The position numbers were made by a program, and so were the translations under genes. Under the pieces are notes generated by a model. That model was not told where the DNA came from and made no database searches. It saw only the letters and a list, made by a program, of their open reading frames with translations. A stretch of 64,000 nucleotides of DNA from Arthrobacter globiformis (GTDB lineage Bacteria > Actinomycetota > Actinomycetes > Actinomycetales > Micrococcaceae): assembly GCF_030815865.1 (NCBI RefSeq), contig NZ_JAUSXI010000001.1, forward strand, positions 2,666,001 through 2,730,000, in the 5' to 3' direction. Position 1 is the first letter of the stretch. The number at the start of each line of letters is the position of its first letter. Below are positions 15,527 through 26,457 of the stretch, piece after piece.

Positions 15527-15552
15527 CTAAGTATTAGCAGACTAATGATTGG
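15527..15552. promoter_or_regulatory. Double OhrR/MarR-type operator, site 1
   Basis: Two half-sites, CTAAGTATTAG (15527-15537) and CTAATGATTGG (15542-15552), separated by 4 bp. The same 11-4-11 layout occurs at 18434 and 26432. It lies between the divergent sufS unit and the ohrR-like gene, and the second half-site reaches the ohrR ribosome site, so autoregulation is likely. Confidence 0.75.
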
Positions 15553-15559
15553 AGCAATG

Positions 15560-16036
15560 ATGACTGAGGTGGCGCGTCAGCAGGGGACTGAGAATGATCT
15601 TCTGCTGGAGAAGCAACTGTGTTTTGCTTTGAGCGTCGCGGCCAGGAGCGTGGTCGGGGCCTACAGACCCGTGCTGGAAAGGCTGAACCTCACTCATCCG
15701 CAATACCTGGTGATGCTCGCCCTGTGGGAGAGAAGCCCACAATCGCTTCGGGAGATCAGCAGTGCGCTGGACCTCGAGCCGGCGACGCTGTCGCCGCTCC
15801 TTCGCCGCCTGGAGACAGCCGGCCTGATAACACGACGGAGAGTACCGGGAAACGAACGCGCACTCGCCGTTGAGCTGACAGCAGCAGGTGTTGCCCTGCG
15901 GTCCGAAGCGCTGTCCGTGCCACAGACCATGATGCAGAGGCTCGGGCTCGACCGGGAAGATGTTATTCAACTCCATGCGGCAATGACGCGGCTTATCGAC
16001 GCTACAAAGGCCAGCCGTCAGGGCACTGCCGACTAG
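15560..16036 (+). CDS. ohrR: OhrR/MarR-family redox-type regulator
   Basis: Winged-helix repressor of 158 residues. The N-terminal KQLCFALSVAAR with Cys21 corresponds to the single reactive cysteine of OhrR proteins, followed by the family signature LNLTHPQYLVMLALWE. The recognition helix is around LDLEPATLSPLLRRLE and the wing around RRRVPGNERA. The ATG at 15560 is chosen because GGAG lies 5 nt before it; 15545 and 15557 are alternatives. It probably binds the CTAANNATTAG double site next to it. Decayed paralogues occur at 18487 and 22578. The inducer is unknown: organic peroxide is known for the family, other thiol-reactive agents are possible. Confidence 0.87.
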   Translation: MTEVARQQGTENDLLLEKQLCFALSVAARSVVGAYRPVLERLNLTHPQYLVMLALWERSPQSLREISSALDLEPATLSPLLRRLETAGLITRRRVPGNERALAVELTAAGVALRSEALSVPQTMMQRLGLDREDVIQLHAAMTRLIDATKASRQGTAD

Positions 16037-16473
16037 TTGGCGATTGCCCTAGCTGGCAGGCTTGGGCGCCCTGCAACACCAGCTTGCCCTTCCAGGCCGC
16101 TCTCCGCATGGCTAGAACTCACGGGCTCCTCGCCGAATGATGTCACTGCCGTGCGCGGTTCCGGAGCAGGACCTTGGTTAGCGAGTCCAATCGACTCCAA
16201 GGACGTCTCCGCAGCCTGCCTCATGACAAGGAAGCATCCTTATAATTCCCAGGTCACGTGGCACTCCAAGTACCGACCACATGCCCGGGCGCGAGCAGCT
16301 CGGTAGCTGGCCAACAAGCACCGGCACACGGGCACGATTACGAGCAGCCACGATGCGAAGCATAGATTTGTCACTCGACAAGGAGAATTAAGGGCGTATG
16401 ACAGACGGATGACAAGATTACTCACACCTTGACAGTTTGCAGCAAACGGTTGAGAAGCCACATTCCGCCCTAC
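16037..16473. other. Intergenic stretch without a gene
   Basis: I see no coding sequence here. Around 16379-16410 a good ribosome site (AAGGAG) precedes an ATG whose frame closes after four codons, suggesting that the 5' edge of a lost gene is preserved. Confidence 0.5.
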
Positions 16474-16761
16474 TTAGCCGGGGCCACAAGTAACCGTCCC
16501 TCTGGGGCCAAAAAAGCTTGACACAATCAACAACACCACCGCGTGGCGTTCGTTCGGGTTCTCGAATTCAATGCTGCCTGAATCTAGGGGTTCCAGGCCC
16601 GCGATGGCCCGTAGCAGTGTGGATTTTCCGCTGCCGCTGGGGCCAAGTACGGCCAAGACCTCGCCTTTGCCCAGGATCAGGTCGACCCCATCCAAGGTGG
16701 GGCCGGTCGCGAATGAGTAGGTCTTGGTGGCCCGGCTTACTGTGAGTGCTGTATTTCCCAT
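16474..16761 (-). pseudogene. ABC transporter ATPase (nitrate/sulfonate/taurine type), N-terminal relic
   Basis: The first ~70 residues of an SsuB/TauB-like ATPase are intact: the A-loop region, Walker [12 protein letters not shown] and [11 protein letters not shown]. After about residue 73 the sequence becomes unrelated and stops, so Q-loop, signature and Walker B are lost. The start overlaps the end of the acyl-CoA-dehydrogenase-like gene by 25 bp, so it was part of the same operon, most likely sulfonate or sulfur-compound uptake. Confidence 0.78.
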
Positions 16762-17774
16762 CGCAGGTGTCCTTCCGTAGGGGATTGCACGGGCAGAAAC
16801 GCTGCCTCGCGCAGGCGCCGGGCTGTGGCTGACGCCGACTGGTATCCCCGGCCACCCACCACTGCTGCTTCCAGTCGAGTGGCGGCGCCGGTCAGGTGGG
16901 CGCTGTCCAGCCGCAACTGCAGCAATGACAGCTTGGAGGGCGGGGACGGGTCTTCAGCCATGGCAATAAACTCGCGCTGCAGCCGCCTGAACTCCTCGGT
17001 CACCACGTCCGCATCTGGTTTGAAGCTTTCGTTAACTCCAGTGAGGCCATCTGCGGCGGAATTCAACGCAGCCGCCGAAAGGCCCAGGCAGAAGGCGGCC
17101 TGCAGCAGCAGGAACGGTTTCCGGATTGACGTCAGGAACGCGGGCACATCATCCGTCATGATGTCCGACGTCCGAATGAAGACGTTCTGAAACTCCAGCG
17201 ACGCCGAACGTGTCGCGTTCAGGGCAAGGAGCTCAGTGAGATGACGTACGGTAAGGCCTGTTGCACCCGCCATCGTCCGCACGATCAGTGCCTTGCCGTC
17301 CTCTTCCACGACAGGCAGGACGACGATGGCATCGTCATAGATATTGGACGCCCACGGAATACTGCCGCTGATCCTGAGGCCGCCGTCGACTCTTCGGGCC
17401 AGAACCGGAATCTCACTGATACCGGCAGCGGCTTTGAAGGCGGGGGCCATGGCAGAGGCGGCCGGCCGCTCCGCCTCGAGAACGCCGGTGGGCAATTGGG
17501 CGCCTGTGGCGTCGTGGTATGCCACAGCCATGCGGTGCCCCCACAGCGAAAACGCGGAGGCAACACACTCTGAGGCCAGGTCGTATATAACGGCGGACAT
17601 GGGCAACAGTGATCCGCTCCTGCCCAAGTCCAGCAGACCGATCTCTCCGATGCTTTGGAGCAGCGTGAAGGGTGAAATCTGGCCTGCATCAACATGCGCG
17701 GCGCTGCGCCGTGCCTGTTCCAGGAGTGCGCTGCGTTGCGGATACTGCAGCAGCGGTTCGGCGAGGGGTTCCAT
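16737..17774 (-). CDS. Acyl-CoA dehydrogenase-like flavoprotein (sulfur-acquisition type)
   Basis: Protein of 345 residues with the acyl-CoA dehydrogenase fold in compact form: a helical N-terminal domain, a middle beta domain ([31 protein letters not shown]) and a C-terminal four-helix domain ending [20 protein letters not shown]. The GGxGY-like segment and low similarity to true fatty-acid enzymes point to the DszC/SfnB-like group that works on sulfur compounds with reduced flavin. The link with a sulfonate-type ABC ATPase supports this, but the substrate is inferred. Gap of 11 bp to the upstream DUF4242 gene: same operon. Confidence 0.75.
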
Positions 17775-24975: not shown

Positions 24976-25422
24976 GCGTCCGCGTCCTTCCAGTTTACTG
25001 AGCCCGTAATGCTGCGCCGTCATCGCGGGTACGCGGCTGCTGCAGATCTGGGTCGTGCCGGTGAAGCGCCGGGCGCTCGGACAGGACACTTGGCCGAAAG
25101 GTGAAGTCAAGGCCCATATGCGGACAAGACGTTCCCCATCCCGGTGAGGTACCCAGGCCCGTGGGAGCACCGGCCTTGTTGGGGGTTCCCGTGGTCCTTC
25201 TGTGCGCGCTACCGGTGCGATCCATCAGACTCATAGACTTGCTTTCCTTTTCTACATTTCACGTGCCGCCTGCCGGGGATGCGCCCGGGGTGTACACACA
25301 ATTGGCTTGCTTTTATAACGGAGTCACCCTTTGTAGGGGTCCACCTTCTATAGGCGAGGGAAGGCCTGTTACCTGGGAAATTGCCAACTTATTGCGGCCT
25401 ACGGCGTGGACGGACGATTCAG
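24976..25422. other. Stretch between chdC and ctaF without a clear gene
   Basis: Minus-strand frames are open in parts (a peptide starting MDRTGSAHRRTTG at about 25228) but show no known domain. It may be the degraded remainder of an oxidase subunit gene that once preceded ctaF. Confidence 0.4.
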
Positions 25423-26154
25423 TCAACGAAGGACATCAGCAATTTCACTTGGCTCAATTCGTCGGCCGGTGAAAAAGGGAACTTCTTCACGAACGTGCTG
25501 ACGGGCGCTTGTTGTTCGTAGATGGCGCATGAGATCGACGAGATCCGTCAGCTCCGGCGCTTCCAATGCAAGCAGCCACTCCCAGTCGCCCAGCGCGAAG
25601 GACGAAACGGTGTTGGAGATAACCTGGGGAAATTCCCGTCCAAGGAGTCCGTGATCACGCAGCATGAGTCCGCGTTCCTCTGCCGGGAGCAGGTACCAAT
25701 CGTACGAGCGCACAAACGGGTACACACAGACCCATGCTCCAGGCTTTATCCCTTCGGCGTAGGCCGGTACATGGCTTTTGGCGAACTCCGCTTCCCGATG
25801 AACGCCCATCGCAGAGCATGCAACGGTTGTGCCTGCGAAGAGGCGAGTACGCCGAATTTTCCGGACGGCGGACTGAAGCGCCTCGGGCCGGCTGCCGTGG
25901 AGCCAAACCATGACATCGGCATCGGCGCGCATGGAGGAGACGTCGTAGGCTCCCCGAAGGGTCGTTCCGTCCTGACTGATTTCAGCTAGCAGGTCCTCCA
26001 AGGAGGCCGTACTGTCCGGTGTCGTACTATCCGCGCCGCGGCTGAAAACCGTCCAAAGCGTAAAAAATTGTTCAGGTTCCTTGACAGGAGTCCGGGCAGT
26101 AGACGCGGAAATGCCGTTCAAAAGGTGATGCCTGCTTTCAGGGAGCATTTTCAT
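25423..26154 (-). CDS. chdC: Coproheme decarboxylase (HemQ/ChdC)
   Basis: Last enzyme of the coproporphyrin-dependent heme pathway of Gram-positive bacteria: two H2O2-dependent decarboxylations turn coproheme into heme b. The 243 residues are full length. Tyr145 in YPFVRSYDWY is the catalytic tyrosine and His168 in LRDHG the proximal heme ligand; NTVSSFALGDWEWLLALEAP and HVREEVPFFTGRR complete the fingerprint. hemY, cpfC and other heme genes are not adjacent, so this is a second, displaced copy. It lies 30 bp behind the small gene at 26185 and thus probably under the same double operator. Confidence 0.92.
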   Translation of the reverse strand: MKMLPESRHHLLNGISASTARTPVKEPEQFFTLWTVFSRGADSTTPDSTASLEDLLAEISQDGTTLRGAYDVSSMRADADVMVWLHGSRPEALQSAVRKIRRTRLFAGTTVACSAMGVHREAEFAKSHVPAYAEGIKPGAWVCVYPFVRSYDWYLLPAEERGLMLRDHGLLGREFPQVISNTVSSFALGDWEWLLALEAPELTDLVDLMRHLRTTSARQHVREEVPFFTGRRIEPSEIADVLR

Positions 26155-26184
26155 GGGCGGGGGAGGCGCTAACCGAACTAGCGG

Positions 26185-26388
26185 TTACCGTGCCACCAGG
26201 TAGGAAGTGCCATCAGCATTGCGCACGGTAGCCCACTGCCGCAGTTGCTCTTCGCGCTGAAGCTGTGCTGCATCCCGCCGCACAACCACCCGGCCCGCGA
26301 CCGAACCCTGTTGCGCGGGGCCGAAAACCGCCCTTAGCTTCCCTGTGCCCCGCATGAACTTCCGAACGAACGACTCTTTGCCAGCCAT
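26185..26388 (-). CDS. Small protein, SufS-coupled family (copy 3)
   Basis: Sixty-seven residues. FVRKFMRGTGKLRAVFGPA at 7-25 and QWATVRNADGTSYLVAR at the C-terminus match the proteins at 15259 and 22841, with a shorter, more basic middle. Here the partner gene downstream is chdC instead of sufS. The start at 26388 lies 44 bp from operator site 3. The family has no function known to me; the constant pairing with one operator type suggests a stress-response adaptor. Confidence 0.72.
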   Translation of the reverse strand: MAGKESFVRKFMRGTGKLRAVFGPAQQGSVAGRVVVRRDAAQLQREEQLRQWATVRNADGTSYLVAR

Positions 26389-26431
26389 GCCTGTCCCTCT
26401 TCCTTACGGTACTTCCGTAACACTTAGTGTA

Positions 26432-26457
26432 CTAAGTATTAGACCGCTAATCTAATT
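26432..26457. promoter_or_regulatory. Double OhrR/MarR-type operator, site 3
   Basis: CTAAGTATTAG (26432-26442, identical to the left half of site 1) and CTAATCTAATT (26447-26457) with a 4-bp spacer. It lies between the small gene plus chdC on the minus strand and serC on the plus strand, so it could control both directions. Confidence 0.75.

What the first reader, a model, noticed from the sequence alone, without database searches (positions are those of the whole stretch)
15527..26457. Three identical-architecture double operators define an OhrR-type regulon of unusual membership
At 15527, 18434 and 26432 two 11-bp half-sites of the type CTAANNATTAG stand exactly 4 bp apart (26 bp in total); left halves of sites 1 and 3 are identical. 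Each lies in a divergent promoter region. Targets would be sufS with its coupled small gene, ohrR itself, the DUF4242/acyl-CoA-dehydrogenase-like operon, a second small gene with chdC, and serC. OhrR proteins normally control a peroxidase (ohr), which is absent; a regulon of PLP enzymes, heme synthesis and sulfur genes has not, to my knowledge, been described.
Basis: partly seen in the sequence, partly recalled or inferred. Interest (0 to 1): 0.8.

Follow-up and report, generated by a model that had tools for sequence, protein, structure and literature searches.

The report
OhrR-like repressor with spare-enzyme regulon
A redox-type repressor that normally guards one small unknown protein gene in Arthrobacter and its close relatives has, in this strain, also acquired sites in front of spare copies of iron-sulfur, heme and serine synthesis genes, which suggests a reserve set of enzymes switched on by stress.

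Summary
The unit is a palindrome TTAG-N4-CTAA, repeated after 15 bp (27 bp in all): 15519-15545 (2 mismatches), 18426-18452 (1), 26424-26450 (0). That is the ancestral form: regulator, operator and small gene recur in nearly every genus genome sampled, usually with one site. The regulator is a 1-Cys OhrR paralogue with altered sensor residues and a different operator; an ordinary ohr-ohrR pair exists elsewhere in the genome, so ohr is not absent. The neighbouring sufS, chdC and serC are open second copies (69-75% identical) of housekeeping genes; no comparable second sufS or serC turned up in the other genomes sampled. One independent case supports recruitment: the only other chdC above my score threshold among 206 genomes, on plasmid pNicSoilB8, has the same double operator. 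Binding, inducer and the small protein's function remain untested. I judge it a new variant of a known kind.

The parts
15519..15545 (.). Operator 1, AGAG-TACA-CTAA-GTA-TTAG-CAGA-CTAA, between small gene 1 and the regulator gene
   Evidence: 2 mismatches to the tandem palindrome; profile score 37.3, highest in 20 simulated windows -3.2
18426..18452 (.). Operator 2, TTGG-TACG-CTAA-TGA-TTAG-CACC-CTAA, about 110 bp upstream of the DUF4242 gene
   Evidence: 1 mismatch; profile score 32.5
26424..26450 (.). Operator 3, TTAG-TGTA-CTAA-GTA-TTAG-ACCG-CTAA, perfect double palindrome between small gene 3 and serC
   Evidence: 0 mismatches; profile score only 7.3
15560..16036 (+). MarR/OhrR-like regulator (MarR1; the longest open frame starts at 15545)
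   Evidence: Pfam MarR 8e-15; nearest solved structures by sequence are OhrR 2pfb and 1z91
15259..15474 (-). Small gene 1, 71 aa, FGPA family; its stop overlaps the sufS start (GTGA)
   Evidence: homologue in 61 of 61 genus genomes
13904..15262 (-). Second copy of sufS (cysteine desulfurase)
   Evidence: TIGR01979 544.8 bits, cut-off 475.1; 75% to the own housekeeping copy
17786..18316 (-). DUF4242 / SCO4226-like gene
   Evidence: PF14026 1.2e-21
16737..17774 (-). Acyl-CoA-dehydrogenase-like gene in line with DUF4242
   Evidence: no Pfam hit; weak SfnB TIGR04022 18.8 bits, cut-off 430.9
18490..18639 (+). Decayed marR remnant beside operator 2
   Evidence: 39% over 54 aligned positions to MarR1, E 9e-6; frames read
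26185..26388 (-). Small gene 3, 67 aa, FGPA family
   Evidence: a gene of this type at E 1e-16 in 2 of 206 genus genomes, own included
25423..26154 (-). Second copy of chdC/hemQ
   Evidence: HemQ_actino 313.9 bits, cut-off 235; own housekeeping copy 69% identical
26509..27639 (+). Second copy of serC
   Evidence: TIGR01366 583.1 bits, cut-off 401.65; own housekeeping copy 72% identical
22599..22841 (-). marR pseudogene of a decayed second module
   Evidence: 84% over 81 aa to MarR1
22856..23033 (+). Small gene 1 pseudogene of the decayed module
   Evidence: 74% over 53 aa, frame broken
23080..24369 (+). sufS pseudogene of the decayed module
   Evidence: five pieces, 71-88%
31630..32207 (+). 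sufS fragment, third copy
   Evidence: two pieces, 76% and 94%
8349..8375 (.). Weak possible fifth site upstream of an alpha/beta-hydrolase gene (7621-8298, -)
   Evidence: 4 mismatches to the tandem unit; profile score 11.6; hydrolase PF12697

Best explanation
MarR1 is a 1-Cys, OhrR-derived repressor that binds a double palindrome TTAG-N4-CTAA-N3-TTAG-N4-CTAA, probably as two dimers 15 bp apart, over the divergent promoters of its own gene and a small FGPA-protein gene. Modification of its single cysteine by an oxidant or electrophile would release it and switch both genes on. That module is ancestral in the genus. In this strain a second, divergent copy of the module sits in an accessory region, was itself copied, and its operator now also stands before second copies of sufS, chdC and serC and before a DUF4242 operon. 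These would be stress-induced spare enzymes for iron-sulfur, heme and serine synthesis. Shown by sequence: the operator, its conservation, its pairing with the regulator gene, the second copies. Inferred: binding, repression, redox sensing, stress role.
For: Operator rare in the genome: 4 places. Module conserved: match in 96 of 101 genomes; small gene in 61 of 61; of 52 named loci 51 have marR and 49 the exact core. Regulator keeps LCFAL and has THPQY in 47 of 47 parsed orthologues, of 52 loci. Where the recognition helix differs, the half-sites differ together: TTCG/CGAA in G036 (0 mismatches) and G003 (1), TTGG/CCAA in G347 (0). Accessory chdC: 2 of 206 genomes have one above threshold and both carry the double operator; the two group with support 99/99 in a tree of 14 rows. 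dN/dS well under 1, though dS is near saturation: sufS 0.12, small gene median 0.11. Two 13-nt OhrR boxes within a 28-nt footprint are reported for Streptomyces avermitilis OhrR (PMC6034001, passages).
Against: No binding or expression data. At sites 1 and 2 the operator may have come along with a copied marR gene rather than been selected for the enzymes. Profile score of site 3 is low (7.3) because its outer arms differ. In the pNicSoilB8 case no small gene and no regulator of this type was found beside chdC. Loss of marR with damage to the core was seen once (L141), but two loci that keep marR (L145, L171) also have one changed core base, so that is weak support. Two of 44 parsed helices have Ala where the rest have Glu or Asp, yet keep TTAG; for three further regulators (L099, L104, G036a) no matching operator was found upstream. 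The sensor residues differ from OhrR, so peroxide sensing is a guess.
Confidence: 0.68

Rival explanations
1. Only local autoregulation is real. The operator was carried along when the marR module was copied in the accessory region; the enzymes beside sites 2 and 3 are bystanders.
For: Site 2 still has a marR remnant, a second decayed module lies at 22.6-24.4 kb, and 83 of 101 genomes have at most one match per strand, not counting the 5 with none.
Against: Site 3 shows no marR remnant and is the only perfect double palindrome of the window. Plasmid pNicSoilB8 has the double operator before an accessory chdC with no marR or small gene of this type beside it.
Confidence: 0.2
2. An ordinary OhrR peroxide regulon whose ohr gene was lost.
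For: 1-Cys OhrR-like regulator; best NCBIfam family is OhrR NF052638 (137.4 bits, cut-off 200); nearest structures are OhrR.
Against: Canonical ohrR-ohr exists in this genome and ohr scores over the cut-off in 61 of 61; its promoter holds GCAATTGAATTGC; two sensor positions are changed.
Confidence: 0.07
3. A resistance island: the second enzymes are drug- or toxin-insensitive versions (SufS and SerC are PLP enzymes) and the regulator answers to that compound.
For: Three open second copies of housekeeping enzymes under one type of operator; cydAB nearby (named by eye).
Against: ChdC is not a PLP enzyme; the ancestral target is a small gene found in 61 of 61 genomes; no compound is indicated by any search.
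Confidence: 0.1

Closest known systems
1-Cys OhrR (Bacillus subtilis and Streptomyces type)
   Same: MarR domain, single cysteine in LCFAL, probable autoregulation, two boxes about 15 bp apart (two 13-nt boxes in a 28-nt footprint in S. avermitilis, PMC6034001, passages; the 15-bp step there is my inference)
   Different: Half-site TTAG instead of ACAATT; Tyr of TYPQY is His and Tyr after LCFAL is Thr or Ser in 47 of 47 parsed orthologues; conserved neighbour is a small protein gene, not ohr
SlyA (E. coli, Salmonella)
   Same: Palindrome TTAG-N4-CTAA; five papers hold both SlyA and TTAGCAAGCTAA (search listing; the sequence was recalled and then searched)
   Different: Match to the SlyA model is 18.7 bits, cut-off 120; no cysteine sensing is attributed to SlyA as far as I recall
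OxyR and PerR control of suf and hem genes (recalled, from no call)
   Same: Redox regulators that raise iron-sulfur and heme synthesis under oxidant stress
   Different: Different regulator families; they act on the housekeeping genes, not on second copies

Membership tests
OhrR | MarR winged-helix domain | tested here: met
   PF01047 8e-15
OhrR | Cysteine in the N-terminal helix, no second cysteine (1-Cys type; classes as in PMC3469484, passages) | tested here: met
   LCFAL in 47 of 47 parsed orthologues; MarR1 has one Cys (sequence). Reactivity itself is untested
OhrR | Tyrosines around the cysteine (positions recalled from B. subtilis OhrR) | tested here: not met
   Middle Tyr kept; the others are Thr/Ser and His
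OhrR | Score over the curated OhrR model | tested here: not met
   NF052638 137.4 bits, cut-off 200; the model's name suggests a narrow, Vibrio-type family
OhrR | AATT-type OhrR box (PMC6034001, passages) | tested here: not met
   TTAG-N4-CTAA instead; the canonical own pair has GCAATTGAATTGC
OhrR | ohr beside it | tested here: not met
   ohr lies elsewhere with its own ohrR
OhrR | Release from DNA by organic peroxide | not testable with these tools
   needs purified protein
SlyA | Curated SlyA model | tested here: not met
   NF002926 18.7 bits, cut-off 120
SlyA | TTAG-N4-CTAA operator | tested here: met
   SlyA sequence TTAGCAAGCTAA in the listing

The most novel reading that the evidence does not exclude
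The FGPA small proteins are the true and universal output of this redox switch and act as partners of the enzymes they now precede: small 1 for SufS (overlapping stop and start), small 3 for ChdC. The accessory region would be a portable kit in which each spare enzyme comes with its own small partner under one thiol-sensing repressor.
Probability: 0.2. Interest if true: 0.75.

Novelty: new variant of a known kind. Interest (0 to 1): 0.52.

Why it matters
It defines a regulator, its DNA code and a conserved small-protein family of unknown function found in nearly all Arthrobacter-group genomes sampled, and makes both testable. The concerted change of half-sites with the recognition helix (TTAG, TTCG, TTGG) offers a natural specificity series in the OhrR branch of MarR, still on few cases. 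It also gives a case of housekeeping enzymes duplicated and placed, together, beside a redox-type switch.

Tried and rejected
Half-site CTAANNATTAG: rejected in favour of the tandem palindrome. Core 12-mer alone as evidence: 7 in the genome against 20 for the reversed control, so the core by itself is not enriched; what tells is that 5 of the 7 lie at the four module places. The other two (1272312, before a gene that looks MarR-type by eye; 2631423, before a gene that looks LysR-type by eye) had no profile score of 8 or more. Second matches in other genomes: by the table, 12 genomes besides the own have more than one match on a strand; I looked only at G083 (the chdC case) and G084 (a site with one changed core base before a small glycine-rich frame, not followed). 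Own paralogue MarR3 at 321 kb, beside a katG-like frame named by eye: no such operator found upstream. Defence system: no PADLOC hit for the three small proteins, DUF4242 or the dehydrogenase-like protein, only weak helix hits for MarR1. Rfam: 0 matches in 8000-33000. Plasmid source of the window: megablast of 8000-32999 found 4 records, each covering 2% or less. Structure of small protein 1: mean pLDDT 64.9, pTM 0.26, too poor for a fold search, so none was run; helix-helix-hairpin is only suggested. PDB by sequence for the small family: best E 0.13. Literature, listings only unless said: TTAGTGCACTAA gave one unrelated plant paper; MarR family with cysteine desulfurase and coproheme decarboxylase gave 0; three of Arthrobacter, SufS, phosphoserine, chlorite dismutase gave 0; Arthrobacter with OhrR and MarR family gave 2; Arthrobacter with MarR, oxidative stress, transcriptom and small protein gave 3, none on this; OhrR operator terms gave 15, 10 listed; OhrR residue terms gave 88, 6 listed. 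Passages were read in PMC6034001 and PMC3469484; no whole paper was read.
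Full report
WHAT THE SITES ARE. In the whole genome (5,110,334 bases; the window is 2666001-2730000) it hits four places, the reversed control none. Against that pattern the sites have 1 (15527), 3 (18434) and 5 (26432) mismatches; at site 3 the better register is 26417 with 2. A simpler unit fits all three: TTAG-N4-CTAA, repeated with a 15-bp step, TTAG-N4-CTAA-N3-TTAG-N4-CTAA. Of 16 fixed bases site 1 (15519-15545) misses 2, site 2 (18426-18452) misses 1, site 3 (26424-26450) misses none. 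The 12-bp core alone occurs 7 times in the genome, fewer than its reversed control at 20, but 5 of the 7 lie at the four module places. A 30-bp profile from 58 distinct sites of relatives gives 37.3, 32.5 and 7.3 at the three sites; the highest score in 20 simulated windows was -3.2. The same profile gives 11.6 at 8343, a weak further site.

THE ANCESTRAL MODULE. The fourth place, 948766-948791, lies between a regulator gene 67% identical to MarR1 over 142 aa and a relative of small gene 1 whose frame is broken. In the genus the 26-mer matched 96 of 101 genomes; 83 had at most one match per strand, 13 (own included) more, 5 none (part of the match list was cut). Two of the five 'none' genomes, G002 and G041, do have a recognisable site with more mismatches. 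A small-gene-1 homologue was found in 61 of 61 genomes, one match in 59 of them, five in the own genome and two in G003. Among 52 named loci (Arthrobacter, Pseudarthrobacter, Paenarthrobacter, Sinomonas and one Micrococcaceae assembly), 51 had the regulator gene, 49 the exact core and 50 a second small gene downstream (two of these in part or in pieces); none showed a sufS in the stretch held. The locus without the regulator gene, L141, has a damaged core; but L145 and L171, which keep it, also have one changed core base, so joint loss is weak evidence. From 32 distinct sites the logo is roughly A..GTAC[AG]CTAATNATTAGTGCACTAACNATTGGAGG. The right end looks like the Shine-Dalgarno sequence of the regulator gene, and TAC[AG]CT has the form of a -10 element; both are my inference.

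REACH. In 394 genomes across the class only 5 had a small-gene match: three of the own genus, one other genus of the family (G396), and one genome of another family of the order (G347, E 4.3e-5). Two further family genomes that are listed had none. At most 15 candidates per genome were scored, so misses are possible. G396 has the regulator and a small gene in tandem behind a related operator. G347 has the divergent regulator gene, a recognisable FGPA protein and a perfect double palindrome of another letter set, TTGG/CCAA. A protein search gave 899 relatives, 120 of them listed; the named ones in that list are mostly 'hypothetical protein', some 'aspartate/methionine/tyrosine aminotransferase', which a 70-80 aa protein can hardly be. 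No Pfam or NCBIfam family matched the two window small proteins above cut-off. The small gene is under purifying selection, median dN/dS 0.11 over 210 usable pairs of 250 drawn from 52 loci, with dS near 1.2.

THE REGULATOR. MarR1 is nearest to OhrR among solved structures and among NCBIfam models, below the latter's cut-off. It has one cysteine, in LCFAL. In the 47 orthologues that my expression could parse, of 52 loci, LCFAL and the middle Tyr are constant, the next position is Thr (46) or Ser (1), and TYPQY is THPQY. The own canonical OhrR has VCFALY and TYPQY, ohr next to it and GCAATTGAATTGC in its promoter. Recognition helix and operator seem to change together: the 51 regulator loci all fit TTAG best; of the 44 helices parsed 37 have Glu, 5 Asp and 2 Ala before PAT. 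Helices with Gly there go with TTCG/CGAA in G036b (0 mismatches) and G003 (1). G347 has DPGT with TTGG/CCAA (0). Three regulators, L099 and L104 with Val and G036a with Gly, showed no good operator upstream. These classes were looked for after the first was seen, so they are a pattern, not a blind test. One paralogue, in G036, has lost the cysteine. In a tree of 26 rows MarR1 is not placed with the own 949-kb copy; the fork is open.

THE SPARE ENZYMES. sufS: at E 1e-180 the own genome has 2, 199 other genomes of 206 have 1, 6 none; the threshold could hide remote copies. chdC: own 2; the other 60 of 61 one gene each, three of these apparently in pieces; G083 was not in that sample. serC: own 2; 39 of the other 40 genomes one, G033 none. 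Small 3 type: 2 of 206 genomes at E 1e-16, the second (G003) decayed. The copies are open frames; dN/dS is 0.12 for sufS against the own housekeeping copy (dS 1.6). For chdC against the own housekeeping copy dS could not be computed; serC was compared with G010 (0.06, dS 3.2, saturated). Site 1 would drive small 1 and sufS, overlapping by GTGA, in one direction and the regulator in the other. Site 3 lies about 35 bp from small 3, followed by chdC, and about 58 bp from serC. Site 2 lies about 110 bp from the DUF4242 start. Whether the DUF4242 genes are second copies was not tested.

INDEPENDENT CASE. A stricter chdC search (E 1e-112) of 206 genomes returned two, the own and G083. G083's copy lies on a 244,714-bp contig that matches plasmid pNicSoilB8 of Arthrobacter sp. 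NicSoilB8 in length and gene position. About 240 bp upstream of it stands TTAGCCCACTAATGATTCGTACACTAA, one mismatch. The two chdC group with support 99/99 against 12 housekeeping ones. At E 1e-10 none of the other window regulon genes was found on that contig, a threshold that a diverged small gene could miss; near the chdC none was found at E 1e-3. hemB, a sulfurtransferase and another MarR gene lie within 8 kb; the hemB upstream stretch shows no such operator. Of the 4 plasmid records with a chdC, A. agilis and Clavibacter are more distant and have no operator, and Streptomyces was not looked at; so plasmid chdC in general is not tied to this operator.

OTHER SIGNS OF THE REGION'S KIN. Contig lengths suggest, without proof, that small 1 and small 3 types share contigs of 78,803 bp (Arthrobacter globiformis) and 1,498 bp, and that a small 1 type and a 78% sufS share one of 3,020 bp. 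Five sufS proteins at 87-93% exist besides the window's own, one in Arthrobacter sp. S13_S34.

HOW IT PROBABLY WORKS. Reduced MarR1 sits on the double palindrome and blocks both promoters. Modification of its cysteine releases it. The step in 1-Cys OhrR from sulfenic acid to mixed disulfide is described in PMC3469484 (passages). Whether peroxide is the signal here is open, since two of the recalled sensor tyrosines are replaced. Spare SufS, ChdC and SerC would then be made under stress. Rivals and tests are given in their sections.

VERDICT. Real, conserved, and more interesting for the module and its small protein than for the listed membership. New variant of a known kind.

Noticed in passing
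window 22599-24369: A second, decayed copy of the regulator, small gene 1 and sufS; the regulator's C-terminal part abuts the small gene, and no operator or N-terminal part was found there.
   Followed up: partly
window 24574-25170: A cytochrome c oxidase subunit IV gene (PF12270) not far from cydAB; whether it is a second copy was not tested.
   Followed up: no
L005:5837-6061: The small gene at the ancestral 949-kb locus is frame-broken in this genome, while the window copy is intact; the best matches of the other 60 genomes showed no stop inside. A sequencing error is possible.
   Followed up: partly
L099:9061-9555: A third OhrR-like paralogue beside katG-like and TetR-like frames (named by eye), also in G002, with no palindrome of this type upstream.
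   Followed up: partly
L238:8977-16935: Plasmid pNicSoilB8 carries hemQ, hemB, a sulfurtransferase and another MarR gene close together.
   Followed up: partly
window 16474-16761: Truncated ABC-transporter ATPase next to the acyl-CoA-dehydrogenase-like and DUF4242 genes.
   Followed up: no
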